The position numbers and the translations under genes are program-made. Below are positions 6,207-23,888 of a stretch of DNA of 24,974 bases, one piece after another. The notes under the pieces were generated by a model. That model was not told the origin of the DNA and did not search any database. It saw only the letters and a program-made list of their open reading frames with translations. The stretch lies in assembly GCA_000310025.1 (NCBI GenBank), contig FN648187.1, positions 366,124 to 391,097 of the forward strand, read 5' to 3'. The stretch is from Ectocarpus siliculosus (lineage: Eukaryota; Sar; Phaeophyceae; Ectocarpales; Ectocarpaceae). Within the stretch, counting starts at the first letter, position 1. Every line of letters begins with the position of its first letter.

Positions 6207-7274
6207 ATGGAGTGGGGAGGAACATTCGTGTTTGAGAGAGCAGGGAGATCGACTCTAGATTCACTATACCCATGGACAAAGCCCCGGCACGCAACAGCCC
6301 GAGAAAGCTGCGCGCTCCGCGGCTCAACACGGGTACCGGCGGACACAAAACCAACCAAATACATCCGCCCCCGACCCCCACCGCTTCCCCGCCCTCCCCC
6401 AGGCGGGAGCATCTTCAGGAGGCCCCGAACAAGGCCTCCGACGGGGGCCCTTTCGGCCTACGGGGCCGACGGTACCCCACCCGTCCTCCCGGATGATCCG
6501 CCGTCTCCAACTTGGTGGCCGCTTGAGGAATTCATGGTCGCGCGGGGGAGCCGTTTACCGATCTACACCTTCGTGTCACAGTTCACGGGAGAACACGAGT
6601 CCGCGCTCTTGCATGGTGAGGATGGCAGCCGCGAGGCGCCTTCACCGGAGCAAGTCGACACTGACGTGGGTTTTCTGCGCGGGTTGAACCTCCAAGGGCT
6701 CCAGGTGGGCGGGGCGTGTGACGCCCCAATCTGGAGGGTCATGGTGTCTCCAGCAGCAGCAGCCGATGGCAAAATACCACGATACGACGAGAACAGCTTA
6801 CCGACCCCCGCCACGCTAGTCGCAGACCTCAAGGCGACAGCTAACTTCAAGAGTGGCATCACCGACATGGATGATGACGGTCCACTGCCTTACCTGCGGG
6901 ACCGGCCGTTCGCCGACGAGATCCACGAGGACGACGACAAACAACACATCTTCGAGACGTTCGACGTTTTGTCAGAGAACATAGCGTTGATGGAACCTGA
7001 GGTAGTCGACCCGGCGATCAGTGAACGTCCGCTGGAACATATCGTGTGGTGCATTGAGGACACGTTGCAGAACTTGGCACAGCTCGCCGCCCTGAAGCAG
7101 TACGTGCTGAAGCAGCGAGTGTTCTATGTTCTGATACACACGGAACGGGTCAAACATGGTGTAAGCGGCTACGTTTCGAGCTCTCATGCGCTACTCCTAG
7201 CGCTGGGGGTGTCGCCCGTCACCGGAAATCTGGTCGGTGTCGTCGCAATGCAATTGTGTAAAGGCATGTTGTAG
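6207..7274 (+). CDS. Uncharacterised 355-residue protein, apparently intronless
   Basis: A single open frame of 355 codons with strong GC-third-position use, especially from about 6480 on. The first about 110 residues are low-complexity (R-P-R-P-P-P-L-P-R-P-P-P) and may not be coding. An in-frame Met in E-E-F-M-V-A-R-G near 6534 is a reasonable alternative start. The middle is acidic (D-M-D-D-D-G; H-E-D-D-D-K-Q). The C-terminal half has an amphipathic helix, E-H-I-V-W-C-I-E-D-T-L-Q-N-L then A-L-K-Q-Y-V-L-K-Q-R-V. I see no signal peptide or catalytic motif and recognise no family. A donor-like GTAAGC at 7161 could end an exon inside the frame, which would make the last 36 residues spurious. 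A retrogene or retroelement-derived ORF are alternatives. Confidence 0.55.
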   Translation: MEWGGTFVFERAGRSTLDSLYPWTKPRHATARESCALRGSTRVPADTKPTKYIRPRPPPLPRPPPGGSIFRRPRTRPPTGALSAYGADGTPPVLPDDPPSPTWWPLEEFMVARGSRLPIYTFVSQFTGEHESALLHGEDGSREAPSPEQVDTDVGFLRGLNLQGLQVGGACDAPIWRVMVSPAAAADGKIPRYDENSLPTPATLVADLKATANFKSGITDMDDDGPLPYLRDRPFADEIHEDDDKQHIFETFDVLSENIALMEPEVVDPAISERPLEHIVWCIEDTLQNLAQLAALKQYVLKQRVFYVLIHTERVKHGVSGYVSSSHALLLALGVSPVTGNLVGVVAMQLCKGML

Positions 7275-10134: not shown

Positions 10135-10284
10135 TTAGACCGGGTCGCCCTCGTCTTCCTCGTCAACCTCCCCGTCCTCGTCACCAGCAACCCTGCTACC
10201 CGAAACCCCGCCAGAGGCGTTCCTGTCGCCGGCGGCATCGGTGTCGCTGGCGGGAGCAGCACCCGTGGTTCCAGCAGCACTCTT
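10135..10284 (-). CDS. TPR: Tpr-like exon t16: terminal acidic exon and stop
   Basis: 49 codons and TAA. The acceptor GTGTTCAG|AAG follows t15 in phase 0. It reads K-S-A-A-G-T-T-G-A-A-P-A-S-D-T-D-A-A-G-D and ends G-D-E-D-G-E-V-D-E-E-D-E-G-D-P-V. An acidic C-terminal tail is typical of Tpr proteins, which supports the assignment of this exon and hence the gene's 3' limit. Confidence 0.75.
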   Translation of the reverse strand, partial: KSAAGTTGAAPASDTDAAGDRNASGGVSGSRVAGDEDGEVDEEDEGDPV

Positions 10285-13200
10285 CTGAACACGTTCCACG
10301 AAGCAGGCGAAACGGGAGCGGGGTCGGGGTGGGTGGGTGGGTACTCATGTATTGCATGCCTTCGCTGCTAGACCATTGACCGCGCATCCCTACAATGGGG
10401 GGGGGCGGGGGCGGGGGCGTACTCATGTTTTGCATGTCTTCGTTCTTAGGCCGTTGACGGCTCGTACTCGAGAGGACGGAGCGTTGTTCCCACAGGATCG
10501 ATCACCGATGGCCAATCGTTCCTTCGTGCGGGGCGGGAGGGAATCAGTGGTAACTCTTGTCTTTCAGCGGTGGTGAGAACGGCAAAATAGACGACACGGG
10601 CAATGAGGCACAAGCTGCCACTCGGGTTAGGTGCAGAGCGCATAGTCTTCCCCTCCGAAACGGGCTTCGTGCATCGCGTCGTTTAACAGCACCGGTCGAG
10701 CGGGTTCCCTCCGAAGTTCCTTCAAGAAAAGGATCCTAAACACGAAAGAAGTGAGTTCGGCGGCGTGTTGAAATGAACAGCCTGCCTCAAGAATTACGGG
10801 ATGGCAGTCCCAAAGTGGCGTCGGGGCAATACAGTACACCTTGTCGTTTCCCATGCATAAGACTAATTGCTACAATAGCTTGCAAAAATAGCCGCCACAG
10901 CAGAGCAAGAAGAGAAGAAGGGCATCCGAACCCTTGTCAGGGTTAAGATAACGGCATGCCACACCGCACAGGGGTGTCGGAGGGGGGGAGAGGAAGCCTT
11001 GCTAGATTAAGGCTAACCAATTGGACTACTCATCCAGCGCCGACTGAGTAGTCTAATGGATTTATTAGCCTTCATCTAAGGTTCTGATGCATGAAAACGG
11101 AGAGTTTGAAGGAAACAGAGAGACTAGGCCTGGACTGGTGAACAAGAAAAATCAAGTCTTGGGAGAGAATTTAGAAAAAAAAAAAAAGACGACAAACACA
11201 GAGAACAACCCGGTGCGTACCTCAGCCGAGGCAGCCGCAGAACCAGAAGCTTGGGCAGCGAAACGCTTCTCCCTGGCCGACAGAAGGACAAAGTGGAAGC
11301 ACGGGCGGAGGAATGCGTCAGACTCGGACACAACAAAACAATGGAGAAAACGACGGGACCAGAGAAGAACCGAAAACAAGCAGCAAGCAGCAGACAACGG
11401 AGTGATATCGGCCAGACAAAGAACATTGGACCAAGCCCTGCTCACTGCCAGGAGACATGTTTCGCGGGGAGACAAGAACAAAATCGGCGTACACCATCAA
11501 TGCTTCCGCAAAAAGATGAAATACGAGACAGGCCACTCCAAGCCTACACAACCACACGTCGAAACAGCAGTCACAAAACAGAATCGACAAAAACAGCAAA
11601 CCTGCGACATACAACCAACACCCACGACTGGCGTCGCGTGCTCGATCCGTTCGAACCTAACCTAAATCCGGTTCTCACTGGGTGGAATGGCATCGTACAG
11701 CACATGGAATACGACGGCACTCTGTGAAAACGGTCGCATCACAACGGGCTTTCCACGTGGATGCGACGACCACTACCACAACAACAATATGACGGCTTAT
11801 CCCCTCAAACACCAACCTTGCGGCCAGCGCCGCGGCAGCAGCCTTAGTCGCACCCCCGCCGCCGTCGCCCGGCTTCTCCCCCGCGCTCTCGCCCGCAGCG
11901 GTAGAAGAAGCAGCCGGGGTCGCAGTTGCAGCATTCGCCGCCGCCGCCGCAGCAGCAGCAGCAGGAGCCCCCGCCGAAGTCGAAGCCACCGGCCTGCCGA
12001 ACGTCGGCACCGCGGAGCCGAAGGAAGGGGGGACCGCTCCGGGAGCCGCGGCCGCGGGGCTGAGCCCGAACTTCAGCTGCCCGCCGCTGGTTGTAGTAGG
12101 AGACGAGCTGAACAGCGAGGACGACGACTTCTGCTGCTGCTGGGAGGGGAACCCTTGGGTCGAGGTGGTGAGCGGGGTGATCCCGAACGCCGTCGTCGGG
12201 GACGGAGGCGACGACGCGGAAGGGTTGGGGACCGGCAGGTTTACCGACCCGAAGGGAGAGAACCTGGGTTGAGTCACGACAACGGGGGCGCCGCGGATGT
12301 GAGAAAGGAAGAAGGGGATACCCACTCGTCGTCCGTGGGGCAAGGTGGTAGGTATGTTGATGTCGAAGACGGGGGTGCCTATGTGTTTCTCTACAGTGGT
12401 ACTGATACGCTACTAGGGGCCGACAGAAACAACACGACTACCGAGGTGGCACGAGAATTCGGTGGGGAGGTGGCGAGATATACACCCGTGAAATCAACGT
12501 CAGCTCTCGTTTTCCCTTTACACAGCCAGACACGCGGGGGGCCTGCTGTAATTGAGGCTTCTGATTTCTGAGCCCCCGTCAAACCGGCCCTGCCCCCGCT
12601 AGAAAACCAACCTACAACATCAAACCAAAACCTCACGTTGCGGCTGACGAGGGCGGCTTCATGGCAGGCAAGCCGCTGCTCCCGAACCCTCCCCCTACTC
12701 CGAAGCCGGCGAACCCTTTGCCGCTGCCGAACACGCCTCCTTTCCCACCAGCGCTGTCCTTCTCCCCGCTACCTCCTCCTTTCGCGCCACCAGCGGCGGC
12801 ATCTACCCCGCCGTCTCCTCCGCGCCCAACGGCACCGCTTCCATCCGCAGCCGCCGCCGCCGCCGCCGCCGCAGAAGCGGAGGACGGAGTGGCAGCAGCG
12901 CTACCGGCGGCGCTTGTGGTGGTGGTAGTCGTCGTCGTCGTCGTCGTCGTCGGTGACGAGAAGCCCGCGCCCAAACCAGCCGACCGCGCTCCCCACTTCA
13001 TGACCCCGAACTTGGCGGGTGCGGTGGTTCCCCCAGCAGCAGCAGCAGCAGCAGCACCAGGGGCAGCAGCAGCAGACGACGAGGATGAAGCCCCCCACCC
13101 GGCGCCGCTGAAGCCGAACGGCTTAGCGGTCGGGTTCAGCGAGGTATTGGTGGTGGTGGTGGCGGAAGCCGACCCAAAGATGCTGCCACCGCCGGCAGCA

Positions 13201-16200
13201 GCGGCGCTGGCCCCGAACCCGGGAGCGGGCGCGGGCGCGGGAGCGGGCGCGCCGGCCGCGCTGGTGGTGGTAGTAGTAGTAGTAGCAATAGATCCGGCGG
13301 CGGCGGGCGGCTTGGCAGCGGCGGGGGCGGTGGCGGCGGCTGTGCCCCCAAACCTCAGCATGCTCGAACCCGCGGCCGGCGCCGGCGACGCGGAAGCGAA
13401 GGGGTTGTCGGACGTCGGCGACGACGGTCCTCCGGCGGTAGCGGCCTCNNNNNNNNNNNNNNNNNNNNNNNNNNNNNNNNNNNNNNNNNNNNNNNNNNNN
13501 NNNNNNNNNNNNNNNNNNNNNNNNNNNNNNNNNNNNNNNNNNNNNNNNAACCAGGGAGCGTGTTCGTGGGTTCGTGAACTTTTGTGCATACGTTTGCCCG
13601 GCGGTAATGTGTCACACAGATCAGGGTGAGGGTTGGGCAACAGCTCCGTTCACGGTACCCAGCCACGTGCTTTTGCCAGGTTTAAGAGTCGAAGGGCGAG
13701 GGGGGGGGGGGGGTACTTTATCTTTTGCATCCCTTAGGGGTTAGCCCATGGAACACGCGCCCTCGAGAGGAGGGACCATTGTTCCCATAGGCCCGGGGGG
13801 GGGGGGGTTGTACTCATGGTCGTGCATGCCGTGGTCGTTATACCATTGACCTCATATCTCTACAAAGCCGGGACGGAGCACGCCGGGTTCTCACCGGACC
13901 AGGCTCTCACAAAACCAAGCGCGAAGCGCCGTGGGGTATTCCGCGAGTCGCACGAAGGGTGCGCTGCATCCTGCCAAGGGTGTTCGGCATCTTGTGCTTA
14001 CTTTCTTGCGTACGGATGACAGCTGCGTATGACTGAATTATTTTCTGGTGCTTTCACTTCCAGAGACAGTTAAAAGCATTGTGTAACTGCCTCGAGGGTG
14101 TTTGATCAATTTAACACTACGTGGTGCGATCATCCTCTTTTGCGCGGAGTGAGGGTTCTCGACCCCGCACAACATACCCTCTCGACCCGTATACGAGAGA
14201 GAACCAAGGCAACGACACCTTGGGGAGAGGAAACGACAAAAAGCACAACACGCGAGGTCGCAAAAAAAAAAGAAACGCTTCCATGTACATACTCGCTGCG
14301 CTGTATTAGCCTGTCCCTGGGAAGAGATAAAAAAAAAATTCCATGTTTATACTCGCGGCGCTCGATCAGTCTGTTCCTAGGAAGAGAGATAAAAAAATCG
14401 GTTCTATGTACAGTCTCCGCCATCAGCCTGTTCATGGAGAAGAGAGAGAAAAAAAAACGGTTCCATGATACACACTGCGCGCCATTCAGCCTGTTCCTGA
14501 GAGAGATAAAAAAAGCGGTTCTACAGTGTTACTCAACTGGGCGCCATCAGCCTGTTCCTGAGACAGATAAAAAACCATTTGCATGTACATACTCGCTGCG
14601 CTCTATCAGCCTGTTCCTGAGAGAGAGAGTGATGAAAGACTATTTCCAGTATGTCAGCCTGTTCCTGAGAAGAGATGATAAAAGCGGTCCCATGTACTCA
14701 CTGCGGGCCATCAGCCTGTTCCTGAGAGAGAGAGACTAAAACACGGTTCTACGCATATTGCTCACTGCGGGCCATCAGCCTGTTCCTGAGAGAGGCCTCT
14801 CCGCCGTCATCGCCACCGGCACCAGCCTCCGCCACCACCGCCATCGCGGAACGTCCCGCCGTAGTAGGCGACGCACCCCGCTGCTGCTGCTGCTGGGAGG
14901 CAGGGGCCGGGGAGACAGAACGGGTAGGGCGAGCGACGGCACCCCCTCCCCCCGCGGTAGCTGCAGCTGTAGCGGTGGTGTTGCCCTCCGTGCCGCCGGC
15001 CGCGGTGGCCGCCGCCGGCGCTGGCGCGGGCGCCGGCGCCGGCGTCGGCTGTCCTCCCTCGAGCTCGGCGACGCGTGCGTGCAGCTTGGTGATTAGGTCG
15101 TTCCTTTCCCTGACCTCCTGCTGGGCACTCGCGAGGGTCTGCGGCAGGGAGAGGGCCCCAACAGGGAAAGGTGGTGTGGGTGGGAATAACAAGAAGATTT
15201 GCCAGCATTTTTGGGTGGGGCATGAAAGGAAAGCGTGGCTTGCTAGGAACAAACCACTCGCAAAAAATATCTTGTGCTCCTCCATTTACCTAGTCTCCCA
15301 CAATAAATCTTTCATGGGGTCTTTTTTTTAGGACGGCATCTACGTACCCCACGGGGCCCACGAAAAGTGACTCTCTCTCGCTCTCGAGCGACAGTACTTT
15401 TACACTGCTGTACAGGCAGACGGCAGAAAATACCCCGTGGCAGTAGAGAAGACGATTCTTGAAACCTGGTCACCCCTCCCCTCTGGCGAAGCCTTCCACG
15501 CACCATAACAACGCTTGATGGGCTCGCTCGCTCACCTCCTTGATCTTGCGGCTGACCCCCTTCATGTTGTCGTACATGGTCCTGTTCGTGACGTTCTCGC
15601 GGTCCTTCGCCCGGATGGCCTCCTCCAACGACGCCACTTTCTTGCGGAGCATTTCCGACTGATTCGTAGCGATGACGACGGCGACGACAATGGTGTTGAT
15701 GATTTTGATGATGATGATGGCGGCGATGATGAAATCATGAAAATGGCGACGACGATGTTGATGTCGATGATGACAATGATGGAAGATGACGGTGATAGCC
15801 ACGATGACGATAATCATGGTGGTGATGGTGTATAGCCATGATGACGAGAGCCGATTGCGGTGGCAAAAGACAAGGTTGAACACGCGAGACAAAAAACGGA
15901 ACGCAGCGGTTATTATAGTACGCTCATCACCTCCTGGGTGTGGTACCCGGCGTGCCTGTACGGTGCAGGACCACTTATCCCAAGTGCCAACTGGCGTGAG
16001 CTTGAATCAAACAAGCCTTGTGCGCATAGATGTTGAAAGGTCTTGACAGCAACCACCAACTCGAGCTTGAACGGTACTTCTATCAATCACACGGCCTGAG
16101 CTTCAAAATACGCGTGCACTACTTGTAAAGCAATTTTGAACAGCACCAGCAGCACACCGACACCAAACGACCGTTTTCAACCCCCCAAAAGTAAAAAAAA

Positions 16201-19200
16201 AACAAACTTTTGAGGTCGTCAATAAATCCCTCACCTGGCCCGAGCCATCCTTGGAAGCGAGCGCCTGCCGCAGCTGTACCCTCAGAGCCTCGCCTTCCGC
16301 CTTAGCCTTGGCGACCTGATCGGTTGTCCGAACAGTAAAGACCATGAATTTGGTCATTCTCAGCTTGGGCCGTGTGCCACAATTCCACAAAAGGAAACAC
16401 AACCAGTGGCAACAACAACAACAACAAAGGCAGAACTACAACCAAAAAAAGACGACCACGCCAAAGACAGACAAAAAATAACACATTGCTCTTGGTTTTA
16501 TGGCCAGAAATTGTCGCGGTTCAACTATCAAGAGTGCTGTCCAACCAACAGCGGTTACGTGGGCGATATTGTTTCGTGCCGACGCTATCTACTAAAAAAA
16601 ACCCAGCAAAGCGGAAAGACCACACTTTTCACAGCTTGTCCGTGCCAACTCGCCTGCTCGTTGAGCTGCTTGGTCACGTTGGCCGTGGTGCTGTTGGCAC
16701 TGGCGCGAGTGCGAGCGTTCTCCTGCCTCAGGGAGGCAGCCTCAGCAGCGGCCTGCACAGACCACGAAGCAAAACACACACAATACAAGGAACATCGAGA
16801 AAAACACCCAGACAGAAAGACAGAAACCGTTAGAGAGCGTGTTCGCGTTTTTTGTTTTATCCCGCTATGAGAGACTGACGTCTTTCTTCGGTCAGACGGT
16901 TAGCGCGGTCGATGCAAAAAAAAAAAAGACCAACAAGTATCGCGCATTAAACGAGTAGGCTGCCGCAGCAACCAACTACCGAGGCAGACCGGTTGGGAAA
17001 TGTCTTTTAGGACGCGGGAACACGCTACATAGCGGCCCGCAGTCGATCGAGGGGTATGTAAGAACGAGCGGCGGACGAGTTGCTCTTGTTGTTGGGGAGT
17101 TGTTATCGTTTGGGGGGGACTTCCCCCCCCTTCACCCCCCGGTCTTCTTTTCGTGCCCGGGGGGGGGGGGGGGGGAGGGGGGGCAGTACGAGGTGGTGGC
17201 CGTACAGTAGAGCTCTCGGAGCGTGAAGGTCTCATTGTCGGTCGATTTTGGGAGTAGTCTACGCAGGTTTTTCAAAGCAAGCAAACATACTGGATAGAGT
17301 ATAGAATCGGCTAAGTTGGGGTTGGGGTTACGGTCTGCGTACCACATGTCAGATACTTTTTCGCAGCAACCTCCTACTTTCTTTGCGTAGGCAGTCCGAT
17401 CTCGATTGGATTTATTGGCCGATTTGGATAAAAGACCGAGGGAGAACCCAGCAATCGCACACGAGACACGTGAAAGACCAGTCGGGAAGTCTTGCGCAAC
17501 ACAATCGGCTGGTTGTCACACACAACAGCGGTGTCTCCAACAGCAACAAGACGCGATACCAGAGTCCGGTCATCGCAAAAAGACACACTTAATATATATA
17601 TGGGGTTTTGTTTAAATTAATTAAATTTTGGATTTTCGGGGACAAGGTTCACAAGAACCTCTACATCAATAGAAAAACAGGGCAAGGGCCTCCTTTCTCC
17701 TCACGTACTGTATGCATACAAACCTTGGAGGCTTTCTCCCTCTCTGCCGCAAGCTTGGCCTCCAGATCGCGGCTGGCAGCAGCCTGGCCATGTGTTTCGC
17801 CGTGAAAAAAAAACACACACACACGAAAACGAAAAGCAATAGAACAAAAAACGTCATGGTACCGGTTGCTTTTCGGCGTTTACACATGAAATATATTAGC
17901 AATGATTCAATTTGGCGGAATCGCAGAAATACGGAAACCCGCCAAAACATGGAATGTGGGAAACCGTGGAATGAGCGACCACTCCAACGGAACAACGCCG
18001 AACACGTAAATCTGGTGACATCTGAACAACCCTTGTGGCATACCACATGGACAACCGCACTGAAAATTGGTCTCTCATACCACACGTTAAGCTGCGGAAG
18101 GACGGAGGAACACCCAAATCTCAAGCGGAGGCCACCAACCAAAAAATACAATCGACAACGAGGGTGTCTTTATCGCTAGCATCGACCGCGATAACCGGCT
18201 GACCAATGAAAAGACGTCAGTCTCAGTGCGGTTGAAAACACAAATGCTTCTGAAGGCCACAATCTGGGACCCCGTGTGTGTGGGGGGGCTCCACACTAGT
18301 ATGATGGAATGGAAGGTGGAACAATCTACACGCTGAATTATTGGAAGAAAGGCTTACCTTTTGGGCGGCCGAGGCAGAAAGCGACTTCCTCAGCTCGTGC
18401 ACCTAAACACAACGCGGGCATGGGAAAAAAACGAGACATTTTATGAAAGAATATGCAAAAGCGACAAAGGACTCCTCGCGAAAGAGAAAGAGACGCTCGC
18501 TCCCCCGTTTAAGATTTACGGGAGGATCGTGCACTTTTGTTGTTGCATAGCTCTACATCACAAAAAGCGCGGATTGATCAATTGGAGCACCGTTTCTCTC
18601 TGCACATACGCTGTTCCAATCATTGGCGGAAGCGAGCATTTTTCTTGCAAAGTGAGTTTTCCTCTCGCTTTCGTTCCTGGTCTTGGGTGGAAAGCGCTAT
18701 TGTGTTCGTGTGTACACAGAGGGAAGAGAGTGCTGAACTCTTCTCGCATAAAAAATTGAAGGCAAAGCACCCCAGGAGGGATGGGTAGTGTGTCTCAGGG
18801 AGAGGGACGCTTCTGCGTGACCACGGGTTGGAGTACGTGGCACGAATGCCGTGAAGCGCTGATTTTGAAGTGATGACGAAAAAAAAAAAAAAAAGTTAGA
18901 TTTTCAACGTGAAGACGCTATGAATTCATTGCTATTTAATCTACCCAGGACTCTTTTTCTATGGATAGAGATGGACTCATTGTGTCATCTTCAACAAAAA
19001 TAAAAACAACAGAGCTTTGCTTCCTCCCGTTCACCTGAGGGAGGACCTTGGCCTTGATGGCGTTGGCATCGTCCCGCTCTTTCTCCGCCGCTGCCTTGCC
19101 GCGGGTGAGGTCGGCCTTGGCGTTCTCCAGGGCGGCCTTCGTTTGGTCGGCTTCGGCGAGGGCCTTGGCCAGCCGCTCCTTCTCGGCGATAACGTCTTCG

Positions 19201-22200
19201 TGGTCCTTGGGATCCACCTAAAACCACAACAACAATGACAACAACACCAACAATATGATCATCAACAACACAATCGAAATCAACGACAACATCGTCATCA
19301 TCAACAACAATAGCCACGAGAACAATAGAGGAAATAGAAACAACAGCACCAACGTGATCTTCATCAACAACAACACAACCAAAATCAACGACAACATCGT
19401 CATCAACAACGATAACAACGACAACAACAGAAGAAATAGCAACAACAGCACCACCAACATCATCATCATCAACAACAACACAAATCAAGATCAACGACAA
19501 CATCGTCATCAACAACAACAACGACAACAACGCTAGAAGAAAAAACAACAGCAACAGCACCGGCAACGGCAATAGCAACATGATCAACAACATAATCAAA
19601 ATCACGGACAATCGGTCATCAAAAACAACAACAATACAAGAAAACAAGAAATAACAACAACAGCAACAACAACAGCACCCACAACAAACACAACATCATA
19701 TCCAACACCCAACAACAACAACAATGTGCTACAGATTGGAGCTTTTACCGCGTTGAAACTGGCGGTGAGGCTGGTGACGCGCTTCTTCCAGTTTTCCACC
19801 TCCTTGCGGAGGCTTTCCTTCTCCGAGGCAAGGGATGCCGATGACGCCGACTGCTGCCTCTGCGCACGCTGGAGCGGAGCCATCTGGGCACGCAGCTGGC
19901 TCAGGCTATATTCGCGACAAAAAAGAGAGCCCAACAAAACAATTCACGGCGTGCGCACGCGTATTTAGCAGAAGACAGCTCAAAAATGTGATTGGGATGC
20001 AAGAGTTTCTAACGAAAACGGTTCCGAGAGAGCACCAACAAACAATTCACGGCTGATGAACATTTAGCAGAACAAGGGAAAGTAGAGTCTTTGGGATTAA
20101 ACGAAATAGGGACGTGGATGAGGATTGACACTTAAGAACGTGTGTTGTTTGCGTGCCTCTTCGCGACCCAAATAAGTTCAGGCTCGGGTTCGGGTTCAAC
20201 TATTTATACGGTTTCAAACCTGTTACCCACAGGGGAGATATCGCCGTACATGCTGCTCGGGGAACAGCAGCGGAAACACGGATTGGTCGGTAATGTAACC
20301 CTATGAAGACAATGCTCATGTCTGTAGATAGCGACTAATTCGTTGTGGCTCTTGCACGAAAAAAACTTCAAGCTCCAAACCATTTTGAGCAGATTTCTAT
20401 TTCGTCCAAACGTGCCAGTCCCAAGAATGGGCTAGTCATGTGTCTGTCACACCGTCACACAGAAGTGGCATCACACGCATTTCAACAACACCATCATGTC
20501 AGCCCTTCGCTTGGCACCCACGCAGCATGCTGTGACGAACACCAGCACGTCATATACACAAGAGACCCCGGACTGTTGTTCTCTTGCACAACCGGAGACT
20601 GCACCAACAAATGCACCGATGGCCTCAAAGGTGCATAAATCATAGGGCAGGATACTCATCCCACGCTTCGCAAGCATAACAAGGCAAGCACCGAAAAGAG
20701 AGGCGACAATTTATGCGAACGACGCAGCTAGCCGAAGGTGCAGTCGCGGGCCAAGGTATACACCCCACGCTTCGCACGCACAACAAGGCAAGCACGGAAA
20801 AGAGAGATGACAATTTACATGAACGACGCAGCTAGCCGAAGGTGCAGTCGCGGGCCAAGGTATACACCCCACGCTTCGCACGCACAACAAGGCAAGCACG
20901 GAAAAGAGAGATGACAATTTACATGAACGACGCAGCTAGCCAAGGTGCAATCACGCGGGCAAGGCATACACCCTGCACTTTTTATACTTGCGCAAAAAAA
21001 TAGGCACGCACCTCCCTTCGGCCGTACGGCTCCTGCGCTCCGCGTCCCCGAGCTTGCTCCGGAGCATGTCGTTGCTCTCGCGAAGGGTGCTGATCTGGGC
21101 CACCTCTTCCAGGAGTTTCCTGTGCTCCGCCTTGGAGACGGCCTCCACGCTCTCGGTCGCCGCCCTGGCACAACAGCGCAAGCAAACATGCGGTGATAAA
21201 AAAGACGGTATTTACATACAGCAGTGGTAGACACGGTTTAAGAGAGGGTCGTGACAAGCCAGTATTTCTCTTAAATCCGGTTTTCTCTTAAACCGTACTG
21301 CTGTGAAATGTATGTATTTCTCATGGTCATGACAAGCCAGTTCGACTCTCTTAAATCGGTACTTTCTCTTAAATAGTCTCTCTTAAACCGTAGCCGCCAC
21401 TGTAGGTAGAAGTGGGCCCATGAGAGAACGGTGCCATCAGGACGTGAAGCGAAACAAAACCAGGCAGGCAGGACCAGCCCACAGCCGGCTGCCAGCTCTA
21501 CTGCCACTTGTGACATTTCCCAAGCTCAACGGCCTGTTGTTGACTCCAAGAGACTCGAAGGCTCGCCCAGTGAAGTCCCACGTACAAAAACTCACAAATC
21601 TGGATATGTTTAGTAGGTACCTCTGGACTTCCTCCCGGGCCTCCCGAAGCGACTGCTTCGTGCGCTCCAGCTCCGCCTCTACCTTGGTCACCCTCTGCTT
21701 CGACAGCTCCAAGTCCGTCGTCACCACCTGCGGTGTTTCGCGGTTTACCGTCCATCCATCGGTTTTCTTATGTTAGTACAAAAGTGGTGAGGTATAAAGA
21801 CGAGAGTCCGTCGTCAACACCTGCGGTGTTTCGCGGTTTACCGTCCATCCATCGGTTTTCTTATGTTAGCACAAAAGTGGTGAGGTATAAAGACTATTAT
21901 AGAGTACAAGTTTGCTCCGCTGTGTCGCTCGCGGCTCACGTGCTGCTCTCCTAGCGACAGCCTACGCCCCACCCGGCCCCGTCTCCTCCTCTTCCGACTC
22001 CTTTCTATTTGTTTTCGCCAAATCGCCATTTGGATTTTCTGGCAAAGGTGTGTGCTATAACACGGTTCGTGCCTTTCTTCGCAGGCAGGTGCAACCTTTT
22101 CCTGCTCTGGCAATAATTACAGAGCAGGAAGAGGTTGCACCTGTCTGCGAAGAAAGACACGAGCCGGGTTAACACACACCTTAGACAGAAAATCCAAACG

Positions 22201-23888
22201 GCGATGTGGCGAAAACCAAAAAAAAGGAGTCGGAAAAGGAGGAGTCGGAAAAAGGAGGAGACGGGGCAGGGTGGCGTAGGCTTGCTAGGAGAGCAGCACG
22301 TGAGACCCGGGCGAAACAGCGGAGCAAACTTGTACGCGTAGCTACCTACAGCGCTCGGACTGCTCTACGAAGCGGCGCAACTAAATAGGCATCGCCGTGG
22401 TGGGGATACAGGAGACGAGGAGGGCTGGGCAAACGGAGTTTACAGCAGCAGGATTCAGGGTTTTCTGTCATGGGAGCGAGAGAGGTGGGACACATTGGGT
22501 GGGGTTAGCAGTGGAAGGAGTCCATGTGCCGCGACTCCACCTACACGGTCGAATACGGTACCGGCGACCGCCTCATGGCTACGCGGTTTGAGGAACAGAG
22601 CGAGATGACCGGAGCGGTGGATTTCGCAACTGCCTACGCACTGACAGAGGTCGCAGATGATGGACAAAAATAATAGGTTAAGGGATGGGCTCGATAACCT
22701 CATGCAGCGGTGTGTGTATGTTATAGTGGATGCTAAAGAGAACGGAGCGAGAGAGCCTGTCGGCGGAGGGTGTACTTGGCCCGTACGGACGCCATGAGCT
22801 GAACGATAACGGCAAACGACTGCTCAACTTCCGCGATAGACAACAAGCTCGCCGTCACCAACACCTCCTTCAGTACGCGCAAAGGCGGAGTATCACACAC
22901 CTTCAACGGCAGCAAGGGCACCAGGGTGGGCGACCTCAGCGTATAGGCTACATCTTAACGCGACAGGCACACCGACACGTCACCCCCCAAACAAACATAC
23001 ACTACTGTATTCCACTGACGTCATGGATGCATTGCTAACCTATTGCAGACCCCCGTTTATCTGTGGAAGAGATGATTATTTGTTGTGCCATAAGTGCGAA
23101 AAAGACAAAAACACTGTGTTCCGCTGCAGCTATTTACACGAATTCATTTGCTAACCTATCTCAAACTCTTTATCTGCGGAACAGAAAAATTTGTAGATAA
23201 CACTGCATTTGTACATACCTGGACATCTCGGCCCTTGTGGCGGACAAGTTCAGTCAGTTCCTTCACGGCGCGCGCAAGACGCATCTTCTCCTCCTTCTCC
23301 TCCCTGTCCGCGTCCCCCCCGCCGCCGCTCGCAGCTGGGTGAATAAAAAAAAAAACACACACACACACAAAACACTTGTCAGCCCGTTAGCGCGGTCGAT
23401 GCTAATAACAAAAAACAAACACACGCACGCACACAAGAATTATTCGAACCAAAACACAGATTAACAACGCCGAGTAGCGACAAGCACGGTGGCGGGGGGG
23501 GGGGGGGGACAACACGGCGGCTGCACCAAAAAAATAGGCGAAAAAAAACAAAAAAGTCTGCGGGGGACCTCCGCGGCCGTTCGCCCAAGACCCCGACCGA
23601 ACTGTCGCCCGAGACTACCCCTTCCCCCCCCAAAAAAAAACACCAACCCATCAGCGGGGGACCTCCGCCCGCCGTCCCCCCAGTCACCCGGACCCTAACC
23701 GTAGCCCGAGACTACTCACCTCCCCCGCCCTCCCCTTCCTCGACGACCCTGTCAGCCACGGCCTTGTCCTCCCTCGCGCGCTTCGCCTGGGCGGTTTCCA
23801 TCTGTTCCGTGAGGTTCTGGAGGTGCTTCGTGAGGATCTCGTGCTGGGAGTTCAGGCTTGCCAGGCGTTCCTTCGTGTCTTCGCATGT
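10135..23888 (-). CDS. TPR: Tpr/Mlp1-type nuclear-basket nucleoporin with FG-rich C-terminal region; 16 visible exons, 5' end outside window
   Basis: Exons, in transcript order: 23888-23720, 23334-23219, 21727-21621, 21164-21012, 19905-19749, 19217-19035, 18402-18358, 17783-17724, 16752-16654, 16315-16235, 15658-15536, 15138-14766, 13448(gap)-12637, 12263-11817, 11272-11221, 10284-10135. Phases agree at every junction except the one hidden by the N gap. Known family: Tpr/Mlp/NUA proteins are long coiled coils that form the nuclear basket and anchor mRNA-export and spindle-checkpoint factors. Match: L-N-S-Q-H-E-I-L corresponds to the family's 'LN.QN.LLh.ql'. L-L-E-E-V-A-Q-I-S-T-L-R-E-S-N-D-M-L-R and E-N-W-K-K-R-V, followed by V-D-P-K-D, are the most characteristic blocks of the Tpr/MLP1/MLP2-like domain ('LRESN..LR', 'W..R...L', 'DP.'). 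After the coil come a Pro/Ala linker, at least 13 FG dipeptides in Ala/Thr/Gly-rich sequence, a basic E-K-R-F-A-A-Q, and an acidic end, D-E-D-G-E-V-D-E-E-D-E-G-D-P-V-stop. The FG part is unusual for Tpr and could mark a fusion or a lineage-specific tail. Confidence 0.82.
10316..10396 (-). mobile_element. LINE 3'-end fragment, short subfamily (copy R2a)
   Basis: A G/T-rich tract (10316-10340) is followed by GTACTCATGTATTGCATGCC and CTAGACCATTGACC.CGCATCCCTACAA. It is the same short form as copies at 13795-13876 and 24891-24974. In transcript sense its C-rich tail ends about 30 nt upstream of the acceptor of exon t16. Confidence 0.7.
10396..10530 (-). mobile_element. LINE 3'-end fragment, long subfamily (copy R2b)
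   Basis: A G-rich tract (10396-10418) is followed by CGTACTCATGTTTTGCATG, CTCGAGAGGACGGAGCGTTG, GATCACCGATGGCCAATCG and TTCCTTC, collinear with the 3' UTR of copy R1. It abuts R2a head to tail. Confidence 0.75.
11005..11076. repeat. Short inverted repeat (hairpin)
   Basis: GATTAAGGCTAA on the left pairs with TTAGCCTTCATC on the right (one mismatch), and TTGGACTACTCA pairs with TGAGTAGTCTAA. The loop is TCCAGCGCCGAC. It is intronic in the Tpr-like gene (between exons t15 and t16). It could be a small MITE relic or a structured RNA segment. Confidence 0.7.
11221..11272 (-). CDS. TPR: Tpr-like exon t15 (52 bp)
   Basis: It completes a split Arg codon and encodes E-K-R-F-A-A-Q-A-S-G-S-A-A-A-S-A-E. 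Acceptor TCGGCCAG|G, donor GAG|GTACGC. The short basic patch before an acidic end would suit a nuclear localisation or pore-binding element, but this is inference. Confidence 0.65.
11817..12263 (-). CDS. TPR: Tpr-like exon t14: second FG-rich exon
   Basis: 447 bp, acceptor CAACCCAG|G, donor GCAAG|GTTGGT, phase 2 to 2. FG dipeptides sit in F-S-P-F-G-S-V, T-A-F-G-I-T-P, L-K-F-G-L-S-P, P-S-F-G-S-A and P-T-F-G-R-P. Four Gln and five Ser follow, then an Ala-rich stretch and G-D-G-G-G-G-A-T-K. The frame stays open to 11675 past the donor, giving a Val run from intron repeats. I prefer the splice because the next two exons fit its phase. Confidence 0.75.
12637..13448 (-). CDS. TPR: Tpr-like exon t13: FG-rich region (5' side hidden by assembly gap)
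   Basis: 270 codons plus 2 bases between the N gap and donor AAC|GTGAGG. FG dipeptides sit in L-R-F-G-G, P-G-F-G-A-S, S-I-F-G-S-A, K-P-F-G-F-S-G, A-K-F-G-V, G-V-F-G-S-G, A-G-F-G-V and G-G-F-G-S-S. They are separated by Ala, Thr and Gly runs, including a 12-residue Thr tract coded by (ACN)n. Such FG spacers bind nuclear transport receptors in nucleoporins. The exon may start in the gap or between it and 14765. Confidence 0.75.
13449..13548. other. Assembly gap (100 N)
   Basis: Exactly 100 N, the usual placeholder for a gap of unknown length. It interrupts the FG-rich exon t13 at its 5' side, in GC-rich low-complexity coding sequence. The phase between t12 and t13 cannot be checked across it. 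Confidence 0.98.
13700..13794 (-). mobile_element. LINE 3'-end fragment, long subfamily (copy R3a)
   Basis: A 14-G run, then TACTTTATCTTTTGCAT, CTTAGGGGTTAGCCCATGGA and CCTCGAGAGGAGGGACCATT. It is a diverged copy of the R1 3' UTR, in the intron upstream of exon t13. The rest of 13549-14279 shows no exon that I can support. Confidence 0.65.
13795..13876 (-). mobile_element. LINE 3'-end fragment, short subfamily (copy R3b)
   Basis: A 13-G run, then TTGTACTCATGGTCGTGCAT, TACCATTGACCTC and TCTCTACAAAGCCGGGACGG. It is nearly identical to the copy at the right edge (24891-24974) and directly joined to R3a. Confidence 0.75.
14280..14807. repeat. Minisatellite of nine about 60-bp units built from the t12 donor junction
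   Basis: Nine units each contain (plus strand) a variant of GCC-ATCAGCCTGTTCCTGAGAG followed by GATAAAAAA and GGTTC-CATGTACA. In transcript sense each unit is a pyrimidine tract, then CTCTCAG|GAACAGGCTGATGG, then a (C/G)CGCAGYGAGT-like site. The unit nearest exon t12 is its real 3' end and donor. Units start near 14281, 14341, 14404, 14463, 14521, 14582, 14646, 14690 and 14749. Confidence 0.85.
14766..15138 (-). CDS. TPR: Tpr-like exon t12: end of coiled coil and Pro/Ala/Gln linker
   Basis: 373 bp, acceptor CTGCCGCAG|ACC, donor CGCA|GTGAGC. It opens as coil (T-L-A-S-A-Q-Q-E-V-R-E-R-N-D-L-I, then H-A-R-V-A-E-L-E), then becomes low complexity (Thr-Pro-Ala-Pro repeats, five Gln, S-V-S-P, G-D-D-G-G). 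This is the switch from coiled coil to disordered tail. The last about 20 bases and the donor are the unit of the tandem array at 14280-14807. If that donor is not used, the frame stops after S-E-Q-Y-A. Confidence 0.75.
15536..15658 (-). CDS. TPR: Tpr-like exon t11
   Basis: 41 codons: S-E-M-L-R-K-K-V-A-S-L-E-E-A-I-R-A-K-D-R, then T-M-Y-D-N-M-K-G-V-S-R-K-I-K-E. Acceptor GAATCAG, donor GAG|GTGAGC. The coil resembles the part of Tpr just before the end of its coiled-coil region. Confidence 0.85.
15663..15840. repeat. Imperfect GAT/GAC trinucleotide block
   Basis: GATGATGATG and GACGACGACG stretches on the plus strand, hence CAT/CGTC-rich in transcript sense. It directly precedes the acceptor of exon t11 and probably forms its pyrimidine-containing acceptor region. 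Confidence 0.75.
16235..16315 (-). CDS. TPR: Tpr-like exon t10
   Basis: 27 codons: V-A-K-A-K-A-E-G-E-A-L-R-V-Q-L-R-Q-A-L-A, ending S-K-D-G-S-G-Q. Acceptor CGATCAG, donor CAG|GTGAGG, phase 0 to 0. Confidence 0.78.
16654..16752 (-). CDS. TPR: Tpr-like exon t9, probable GC-AG intron follows
   Basis: 33 codons: A-A-A-E-A-A-S-L-R-Q-E-N-A-R-T-R-A-S-A-N, then S-T-T-A-N-V-T-K-Q-L-N-E-Q. The acceptor is GTCTGTGCAG. The best donor is CAG|GCGAGT, a GC-type site. A GT donor 21 bases on (GCT|GTGAAA) would add seven residues in frame. Confidence 0.7.
16871..16914 (+). repeat. SINE-like dispersed repeat, copy b
   Basis: GAGACTGACGTCTTTC then GGTCAGACGGTTAGCGCGGTCGATGC, followed by an A-rich run. It matches copy c over about 45 bp. 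Confidence 0.65.
17724..17783 (-). CDS. TPR: Tpr-like exon t8 (60 bp)
   Basis: 20 codons, A-A-A-S-R-D-L-E-A-K-L-A-A-E-R-E-K-A-S-K, acceptor CATGGCCAG, donor AAG|GTTTGT. Phase 0 to 0, coiled-coil composition. Confidence 0.68.
18175..18224 (-). repeat. SINE-like dispersed repeat, copy c
   Basis: In minus orientation it reads GAGACTGACGTCTTTTCATT, then GGTCAGCCGGTTATCGCGGTCGATGC. It is the only copy in the Tpr-like gene's own orientation. Confidence 0.65.
18358..18402 (-). CDS. TPR: Tpr-like exon t7 (45-bp microexon)
   Basis: 15 codons, V-H-E-L-R-K-S-L-S-A-S-A-A-Q-K, between acceptor TGTGTTTAG and donor AAG|GTAAGC. It is phase 0 on both sides, so it could be skipped without a frameshift. It is too short to identify alone, but its position, phase and coiled-coil composition fit. 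Confidence 0.7.
19035..19217 (-). CDS. TPR: Tpr-like exon t6
   Basis: 61 codons, phase 0 to 0, acceptor TTTTAG|GTG, donor CAG|GTGAAC. It begins V-D-P-K-D-H-E-D-V-I-A-E-K-E-R-L. The 'DP.....L..Ek' start directly after the W-K-K-R block is as in other Tpr proteins. The rest is Ala/Lys/Glu coiled coil. Confidence 0.9.
19218..19740. repeat. CAA/ATC-rich low-complexity intron with about 105-bp higher-order period
   Basis: Almost the entire intron between t5 and t6 is A/C-rich on the plus strand (G/U-rich in the transcript). The block ATCAACGACAACATCGTCATC recurs about every 105 bp (near 19278, 19385 and 19490), with CAACAACA filler. No coding potential. Confidence 0.85.
19749..19905 (-). CDS. TPR: Tpr-like exon t5, carries the E-N-W-K-K-R block
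   Basis: 157 bp, acceptor ATATAG|C (an alternative CTGAG|C six bases on keeps the frame), donor GCG|GTAAAA. It encodes L-S-Q-L-R-A-Q-M-A-P-L-Q-R-A-Q, then S-E-K-E-S-L-R-K-E-V-E-N-W-K-K-R-V, matching the family's 'pL......l.aE...L..d...Wk.R...L'. Confidence 0.9.
20000..20640. other. Intron stretch with no recognised element
   Basis: Part of the intron between t4 and t5. Only short frames and a GGGTTC-containing patch near 20180-20200. Nothing that I can name. Confidence 0.4.
20647..20980. repeat. 104-bp tandem repeat, about three copies
   Basis: GAACGACGCAGCTAGCC starts at 20717, 20821 and 20925, an exact 104-bp period. Two units are near-identical; a partial diverged unit lies on each side. 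It lies about 30 bp past the donor of exon t4, inside the intron. Confidence 0.9.
21012..21164 (-). CDS. TPR: Tpr-like exon t4, carries the L-R-E-S-N block
   Basis: 153 bp, acceptor TTGTGCCAG|G, donor AG|GTGCGT. It contains H-R-K-L-L-E-E-V-A-Q-I-S-T-L-R-E-S-N-D-M, then L-R-S-K-L-G-D-A-E-R-R. This is the most diagnostic match to the Tpr/MLP1/MLP2-like domain. Confidence 0.9.
21217..21404. mobile_element. MITE with TA flanks and about 25-bp terminal inverted repeats (pogo/Tigger-like)
   Basis: The ends are CAG(CAG)TGGTAGACACGGTTT AAGAGAG and, inverted, CAGTGGCGGCTACGGTTT AAGAGAG, each bordered by TA, the Tc1/mariner target site. Inside are several TCTCTTAAA motifs in both orientations and a repeated GTCATGACAAGCCAG-like block. 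Length is about 184 bp; it is non-coding, so a non-autonomous derivative. The left end has an extra CAG triplet. Confidence 0.65.
21621..21727 (-). CDS. TPR: Tpr-like exon t3
   Basis: 107 bp, acceptor ACCGCAG|GTG, donor AG|GTACCT. It encodes V-V-T-T-D-L-E-L-S-K-Q-R-V-T-K-V-E-A-E-L and continues as a heptad-patterned coil ending R-E-E-V-Q. Its acceptor and first codons are duplicated 93 bp upstream. Confidence 0.85.
21712..21894. repeat. 93-bp tandem duplication spanning the acceptor of exon t3
   Basis: AGTCCGTCGTC-CACCTGCGGTG starts at 21712 and again at 21805, followed in both by near-identical sequence to AGGTATAAAGAC. The first copy contains the real acceptor and first about 16 bases of exon t3. 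The second creates a decoy acceptor whose downstream codons read V-L-T-T-D-S-R-L. Confidence 0.9.
21904..22335. repeat. Long imperfect hairpin, about 205-215-bp arms, 12-nt loop
   Basis: The left arm (21904-22108) and right arm (22121-22335) are inverted copies. Outer ends are ACAAGTTTGCTCCGCTGT and CAGCGGAGCAAACTTGT; the inner stem is CCTGCTCT/AGAGCAGG around loop GGCAATAATTAC. The arms differ by indels. The right arm runs directly into the LINE endonuclease fragment. Confidence 0.85.
22290..22960 (+). mobile_element. Decayed LINE endonuclease (EEP-type) fragment, antisense to host gene
   Basis: Pieces in shifted frames read L-V-R-V-A-T-Y-S-A-R-T, then V-G-I-Q-E-T-R-R-A-G-Q-T-E-F-T-A-A-G-F (catalytic-Glu motif of apurinic-type endonucleases), L-M-A-T-R-F-E-E-Q, G-P-Y-G-R-H-E-L-N-D-N-G-K-R-L-L-N-F, and N-K-L-A-V-T-N-T-F-F-S-T-R-K. 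Stops and frameshifts separate them. No reverse transcriptase is present. It is intronic in the Tpr-like gene. Confidence 0.8.
23219..23334 (-). CDS. TPR: Tpr-like exon t2
   Basis: 116 bp, acceptor TTCACCCAG|CT, donor CAG|GTATGT. It completes the split codon of t1 and reads A-S-G-G-G-G-D-A-D-R-E-E-K, then M-R-L-A-R-A-V-K-E-L-T-E-L-V-R-H-K-G. This corresponds to the family's 'l.evvk.lRrek' segment. The A-run/CA-run beside it (23345-23370) is the pyrimidine-rich acceptor region in transcript sense. Confidence 0.83.
23378..23402 (+). repeat. SINE-like dispersed repeat, partial copy d
   Basis: GTCAGCCCGTTAGCGCGGTCGATGC followed by an AAC/A-rich tail. It is truncated at its left end against a CA repeat. 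Confidence 0.5.
23720..23888 (-). CDS. TPR: Tpr-like exon t1 (first confident exon in window)
   Basis: 56 codons plus 1 base: T-C-E-D-T-K-E-R-L-A-S-L-N-S-Q-H-E-I-L, then H-L-Q-N-L-T-E-Q-M and a charged coil ending E-E-G-E-G-G-G. The donor AG|GTGAGT is ideal. The acceptor is ACAG directly after a 14-C run that belongs to a retroelement tail. Confidence 0.85.

What the first reader, a model, noticed from the sequence alone, without database searches (positions are those of the whole stretch)
10135..15138. Tpr/Mlp nuclear-basket coiled coil carrying an FG-repeat tail
Seen: exons with Tpr hallmark blocks (L-R-E-S-N; E-N-W-K-K-R then V-D-P-K) are followed, in phase wherever phase can be checked, by two exons with at least 13 FG dipeptides in Ala/Thr/Gly-rich spacers, then an acidic end. 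Known: animal Tpr, yeast Mlp1/2 and plant NUA are not FG nucleoporins. Inference: in this lineage the basket protein may itself bind transport receptors, either by fusion with an FG nucleoporin or by growth of a low-complexity tail. The link between exon t12 and the FG exons crosses a 100-N gap and a minisatellite, so two adjacent genes remain possible.
Basis: partly seen in the sequence, partly recalled or inferred. Interest (0 to 1): 0.75.

Follow-up and report, generated by a model that had tools for sequence, protein, structure and literature searches.

The report
Nuclear-basket protein with FG-rich tail
A eukaryotic genome encodes the scaffold protein of the nuclear-pore basket (Tpr) and, probably in the same gene, a disordered tail with 13 visible FG motifs that could bind transport receptors; human Tpr is already known to have a smaller version with three, so this looks like an enlarged form of a known feature and is not a new kind of protein.

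Summary
The observation mostly holds. On the minus strand 12 exons (23888-14766) read as one open coiled coil that aligns along its length with human Tpr (typed from recall) far above shuffled controls. After a 100-N gap come four phase-compatible exons (13448-10135) with 13 FG dipeptides (3.4 expected; 0 of 20,000 shuffles reach 13) and an acidic end. The join from exon t12 to the FG exons is not shown: the acceptor is unseen, the t12 donor is weak, and reading past it meets a stop after five residues. I favour one gene (about 0.7): about 93% of the visible interval is minisatellite or repeat, and the joined protein has the tail order of human Tpr. So this is most likely an FG-expanded variant of a known feature. 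Fusion with another FG nucleoporin gets no positive support.

The parts
23720..23888 (-). t1, coiled-coil exon (first found in the window; the contig ends at the window end)
   Evidence: open frame and splice sites; contig end
23219..23334 (-). t2, coiled-coil exon
21621..21727 (-). t3, coiled-coil exon
21012..21164 (-). t4, coiled-coil exon with LRESN block
19749..19905 (-). t5, exon with ENWKKR block; first of two matches in the genome for a recalled human Tpr query, at E 4.2
19035..19217 (-). t6, exon beginning VDPK
18358..18402 (-). t7, coiled-coil exon
17724..17783 (-). t8, coiled-coil exon
16654..16752 (-). t9, coiled-coil exon (GC donor)
16235..16315 (-). t10, coiled-coil exon
15536..15658 (-). 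t11, coiled-coil exon
14766..15138 (-). t12, end of coiled coil and start of Ala/Gly/Pro/Thr-rich tail (no FG in it); weak donor GCA|GTGAGC; read-through stop at 14751-14749
14267..14794 (-). minisatellite, about 60-bp unit, repeating the last bases of t12 with its donor
13694..14187 (-). dispersed repeat inside the t12-f1 interval (14187-13795 in most listed copies, to 13694 in a few)
13549..13699 (-). stretch running up to the gap, 83% identical to one stretch of contig C15
13449..13548 (.). run of 100 N
12637..13448 (-). f1, FG exon (8 FG), 5' end hidden by the gap
11817..12263 (-). f2, FG exon (5 FG)
11221..11272 (-). f3, short exon
10135..10284 (-). f4, last exon, acidic C-terminus and stop

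Best explanation
One gene encodes a Tpr (nuclear-basket) orthologue. Its coiled coil would form basket struts (inferred from Tpr/Mlp biology). Its long disordered C-terminal tail carries 13 visible FG dipeptides in Ala/Gly/Ser/Thr/Pro-rich spacers and ends in a short acidic stretch. The tail most likely works as an enlarged version of the human Tpr tail: a flexible FG segment at the distal basket that binds importin beta-type receptors through their FG pockets and helps receptor or cargo docking at the nuclear end of the pore. Shown: exons, open frames, FG enrichment and the Tpr-like coiled coil. Inferred: the t12-f1 join, receptor binding, location and function, and that the extra FGs arose by growth of a low-complexity tail.
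For: Alignment to human Tpr (recalled) along t1-t12: score 288; maximum 195 in 1000 heptad-class shuffles, 166 in 1000 local shuffles, 146 reversed; t4-t6 core 179 against a maximum of 92 in 2000. FG 13 against 3.4 expected, 0 of 20,000. Testable junctions in phase. Of the visible interval t12-to-gap (14765-13549, 1217 bp) about 79 bp (14266-14188) matched neither the minisatellite nor a repeat. The t12 tail is already A/G/P/T-rich like the FG spacers. No second copy of t3-t6 found: 4 matches, each this locus, of 16 candidates scored. The genome's Nup98 has a similar FG-in-Ala/Pro/Gly style. Human Tpr has 3 FGs and binds importin beta via its FG pocket (PMC2770460 passages).
Against: The t12-f1 join is unseen. 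The t12 donor scores 3.83, second lowest of 15, and 8.4% of 1761 GT sites on that strand score as high; its read-through stop makes t12 a possible last exon. Pfam calls no Tpr or FG family here, nor Tpr N-terminal domains in the genome. Codon use does not single out the FG frame: f1 0.037 against 0.234 for a frame with three stops; f2 0.139 against 0.136 for an antisense frame; stop-free antisense frames exist. The human Tpr query gave only E 4.2 at t5 and its N-terminal part gave nothing. A review says human TPR functions are largely independent of its FGs. No related genome was available for comparison.
Confidence: 0.66

Rival explanations
1. Two adjacent genes on one strand: Tpr ends in t12 (or in an unseen short exon), and a separate FG nucleoporin starts in or near the gap and runs f1-f4.
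For: Stop five residues past the weak t12 donor; gap of 100 N of unknown true size; no expression evidence; no Pfam link of the FG exons to Tpr. [quoted passage not shown] brucei NUP140 is almost wholly FG repeats (PMC11825100 passages).
Against: About 79 of the 1217 bp before the gap matched no repeat, leaving little unique room for two gene ends outside the gap, although intergenic DNA can be repeat-rich too. Tpr would be left with a tail of about 95 residues and no acidic end.
Confidence: 0.22
2. Fusion: the FG exons derive from a former FG nucleoporin (such as a Nup153- or Nup1-like basket protein) that was joined to Tpr.
For: More FGs (13) than the 3 of human Tpr; other basket FG proteins are neighbours in the pore (PMC11416316 passages).
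Against: f1-f4 match no Pfam family; Nup98- and NUP50-domain genes exist elsewhere. Nup153 was not searched for. Tail growth explains the same facts.
Confidence: 0.06
3. The FG reading is a by-product of GC-rich low-complexity DNA and not a functional FG domain.
For: f1-f2 are rich in simple repeats, antisense frames are also open and codon use is indecisive, and no FG family matches.
Against: FG dipeptides exceed composition (0 of 20,000 shuffles); the two other sense frames of f1 hold 6 and 3 stops; f1-f2-f3-f4 join in phase at GT-AG sites.
Confidence: 0.05

Closest known systems
Human/vertebrate Tpr
   Same: Coiled coil aligned along t1-t12, including the EK..L...V..WK.R block, then a disordered tail with FG dipeptides. 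That the human tail also has an acidic region is recalled.
   Different: 3 FGs in human Tpr against 13 here; the coiled coil after the WK.R block is shorter here as modelled.
Yeast Mlp1/Mlp2 and plant NUA (AtTpr)
   Same: Named as Tpr homologues of the basket in PMC8421043 (passages).
Nup153 / Nup50 (basket FG nucleoporins)
   Same: FG motifs at the basket; 25 and 5 FGs in the human proteins (PMC9132428 passages).
   Different: f1-f4 match no Pfam family; a NUP50 match lies elsewhere in the genome. Nup153 was not searched for.
Nup98 of the same genome (contig C27)
   Same: FG motifs in Ala/Pro/Thr/Gly-rich spacers.
   Different: 30 FGs in one 607-codon open stretch, GLFG and FSFG types among them, with a PF13634 match; PF04096 matches lie nearby on the same strand.

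Membership tests
Tpr/Mlp nuclear-basket proteins | Collinear central-to-C-terminal coiled coil | tested here: met
   288 against a maximum of 195 in 1000 shuffles; t4-t6 179 against 92 in 2000. The human sequence was typed from recall; Pfam matches to PF07926, PF25481 and PF25785 check it.
Tpr/Mlp nuclear-basket proteins | Pfam PF07926 (TPR_MLP1_2) | tested here: inconclusive
   No match. The best human stretch covers residues 1-87 of the typed fragment, while the aligned part starts at about residue 60 of it, so most of that region lies upstream of what the window holds.
Tpr/Mlp nuclear-basket proteins | N-terminal Tpr domains PF25481 and PF25785 | tested here: inconclusive
   The window ends with the contig; no match elsewhere in the genome, but these searches go exon by exon and had no eukaryote in which a match is known.
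Tpr/Mlp nuclear-basket proteins | Long disordered C-terminal tail with acidic stretch | tested here: inconclusive
   Met if t12 joins f1-f4; the join is unseen.
Tpr/Mlp nuclear-basket proteins | Location at the nuclear basket | not testable with these tools
   Needs imaging or affinity capture.
FG nucleoporins | Many FG dipeptides in a low-complexity, presumably disordered sequence | tested here: met
   13 FG in 486 residues, 0 of 20,000 shuffles reach it. Disorder itself was not computed.
FG nucleoporins | Pfam PF13634 (Nucleoporin_FG) | tested here: not met
   No match at E up to 10, while an FG stretch of the genome's Nup98 matches at 2.8e-14. I claim FG-like behaviour and do not claim membership in this Pfam family.
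FG nucleoporins | Binding of transport receptors | not testable with these tools
   Inferred from human Tpr (PMC2770460 passages).

The most novel reading that the evidence does not exclude
In this lineage the basket scaffold itself carries much of the basket's FG load: a Tpr whose tail places a dozen or more receptor-binding motifs at the distal end of the basket, where the yeast and mammalian model puts docking and keeps FG repeats at the proximal end (PMC11416316 passages). Basket structure and receptor binding would thus be merged in one polypeptide.
Probability: 0.4. Interest if true: 0.55.

Novelty: new variant of a known kind. Interest (0 to 1): 0.4.

Why it matters
If the join is real, the number of FG motifs on Tpr is evolvable, from 3 in human to at least 13 here. 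That gives a natural test of what the weak FG tail of human Tpr does, and of the idea that FG repeats stay at the proximal basket. Annotation that leans on Pfam would miss it: Pfam names neither half.

Tried and rejected
A second allele or copy to bridge the gap: f1 matched in full only itself; the other 57 of 58 listed matches cover short simple-repeat stretches of it (40 of 72 candidates scored). t3-t6 matched only this locus. Finding the N-terminal half of Tpr: the contig ends, and Pfam or recalled human N-terminal queries found nothing; this does not show absence. PDB search with the coiled coil: three weak matches to other proteins, E 0.05-0.8; a recalled human Tpr fragment: none. Viral contigs: none confirmed. 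Codon bias to prove the FG frame: indecisive. The C15 copy of the stretch before the gap: in its 3.5 kb no reading frame of 120 codons or more has over 2 FGs. A + strand open frame at 6492-6887 has no Pfam family. Structure prediction was not run: a long coiled coil plus a disordered tail would not test the join. Paper searches that might have shown an FG-rich Tpr outside animals were (papers listed of papers found: 1 of 1, 14 of 14, 10 of 247, 8 of 8, 3 of 3, 9 of 9, 12 of 54). They showed me no such report in titles, abstract starts or the passages I opened; this is not proof of absence.

Odds mended on checking: the lack of an anchor domain in f1-f4 was dropped as an argument against two genes, because FG proteins without other features are known; the one-gene tail-growth reading goes from 0.72 to 0.66 and the two-gene rival from 0.20 to 0.22.

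Full report
What is there. The window is the end of contig C46. On its minus strand I placed 12 exons, t1-t12 (23888-14766), which give 555 codons without a stop, and 4 exons, f1-f4 (13448-10135), which give 486 codons and a stop. The visible splice sites are GT-AG, with one GC-AG after t9, and the phases agree; the acceptor of f1 is not visible. Between the two sets lie 1217 bp (14765-13549) and 100 N.

Is the coiled coil Tpr? Pfam does not say so: five matches below cut-off, the best to other coiled-coil models (SHE3, CENP-F), none to Tpr; PDB sequences give three weak matches to other proteins. I compared it with human Tpr, typed from recall; the typed pieces match PF07926 (5.2e-28), PF25481 (2.4e-28) and PF25785 (8.2e-26), and the typed part of the tail holds two FGs, where papers report three in the whole tail. 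The local alignment runs from t1 to the end of the coiled coil in t12, score 288, against a maximum of 195 in 1000 heptad-class shuffles, 166 in 1000 local shuffles and 146 for the reversed sequence; the t4-t6 core scores 179 against a maximum of 92 in 2000. A recalled human Tpr query of 230 residues put t5 first of two matches in the genome, but at E 4.2 with four candidates scored, so that alone proves nothing. No second copy of t3-t6 was found: 4 matches, each at this locus. Most of the human PF07926 stretch lies upstream of the part the window holds, so its absence is not surprising.

Are the FGs real? 13 FG dipeptides in 486 residues (8 in f1, 5 in f2); mean of shuffles 3.4, maximum 11, 0 of 20,000 reach 13. 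The 555 residues of t1-t12 hold no FG. Against: PF13634 does not match, although an FG stretch of the genome's Nup98 does at 2.8e-14; codon use does not favour the FG frame of f1 (0.037, against 0.234 for a frame with three stops), and in f2 an antisense frame nearly ties with it (0.136 against 0.139); stop-free antisense frames exist in both. The Nup98 of the same genome has FG motifs in similar Ala/Pro/Gly spacers.

Does t12 join f1? Not shown. For: the interval is a 60-bp minisatellite that repeats the end of t12 with its donor (14794-14267), a dispersed repeat (14187-13795, in a few copies to 13694; 48 matches listed, itself included, 40 of 2333 candidates scored), and a stretch up to the gap with one further copy on contig C15 (13699-13549, 83%). 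About 79 bp are left over, so about 93% is repeat. An intron swollen by repeats fits this well, although intergenic DNA can be repeat-rich as well. The t12 tail is already Ala/Gly/Pro/Thr-rich, and the joined protein has the order of human Tpr (its acidic part recalled). Against: the t12 donor scores second lowest of 15 (3.83; 8.4% of 1761 GT sites score as high), and read-through gives a stop after five residues. That f1-f4 lacks an anchor domain is no strong argument: FG proteins without other features are known (PMC2951903 passages; T. brucei NUP140 in PMC11825100 passages).

What it means. [quoted passage not shown] importin beta binds Tpr with an apparent Kd of 50 nM, and no specific binding could be measured for the FG-pocket mutant I178D in the range tested. 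[quoted passage not shown] PMC10802689 (preprint; passages, abstract start): TPR treated among eleven FG-Nups, its FG-rich C-terminus extending 108 nm. So 13 FGs here would be an expansion of a known tail. PMC11416316 (passages) puts FG repeats at the proximal basket and the unstructured Tpr/Mlp ends at the distal basket; an FG-rich Tpr would cut across that separation, which is the main point of interest. Nup98-domain and NUP50-domain matches exist elsewhere in the genome, so nothing indicates that Tpr replaced those; Nup153 was not searched for.

Verdict. Observation mostly right, interpretation partly right, background claim wrong for animals; most likely a new variant of a known kind, held back by one gap in the sequence. 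Confidence was lowered slightly on checking (see Tried and rejected).

Noticed in passing
14267-14794: Minisatellite whose unit repeats the last bases of exon t12 with its donor, behind a pyrimidine-rich AG. A script listed eight copies of a short motif, t12's own included; several still look like a short exon with a 3' and a 5' splice site.
   Followed up: partly
21712-21894: Tandem duplication of 93 bp (97% match) that copies the acceptor and first bases of exon t3, making a possible decoy 3' splice site upstream.
   Followed up: no
13694-14187: Dispersed repeat of about 390 bp, mostly 90-92% identical to many places on many contigs of the genome.
   Followed up: partly
20660-20973: Three tandem copies of a 104-bp unit in the t4-t5 intron.
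   Followed up: no
L007 (G000:C27:1528900-1537900): Nup98-like gene of the same genome: an open stretch with 30 FG dipeptides, a GLEBS match below cut-off and, nearby on the same strand, PF04096 matches above cut-off.
   Followed up: partly
L008 (G000:C33:3351168-3351287): Match to the NUP50 domain, 36.8 bits, above the Pfam cut-off of 22.5.
   Followed up: no
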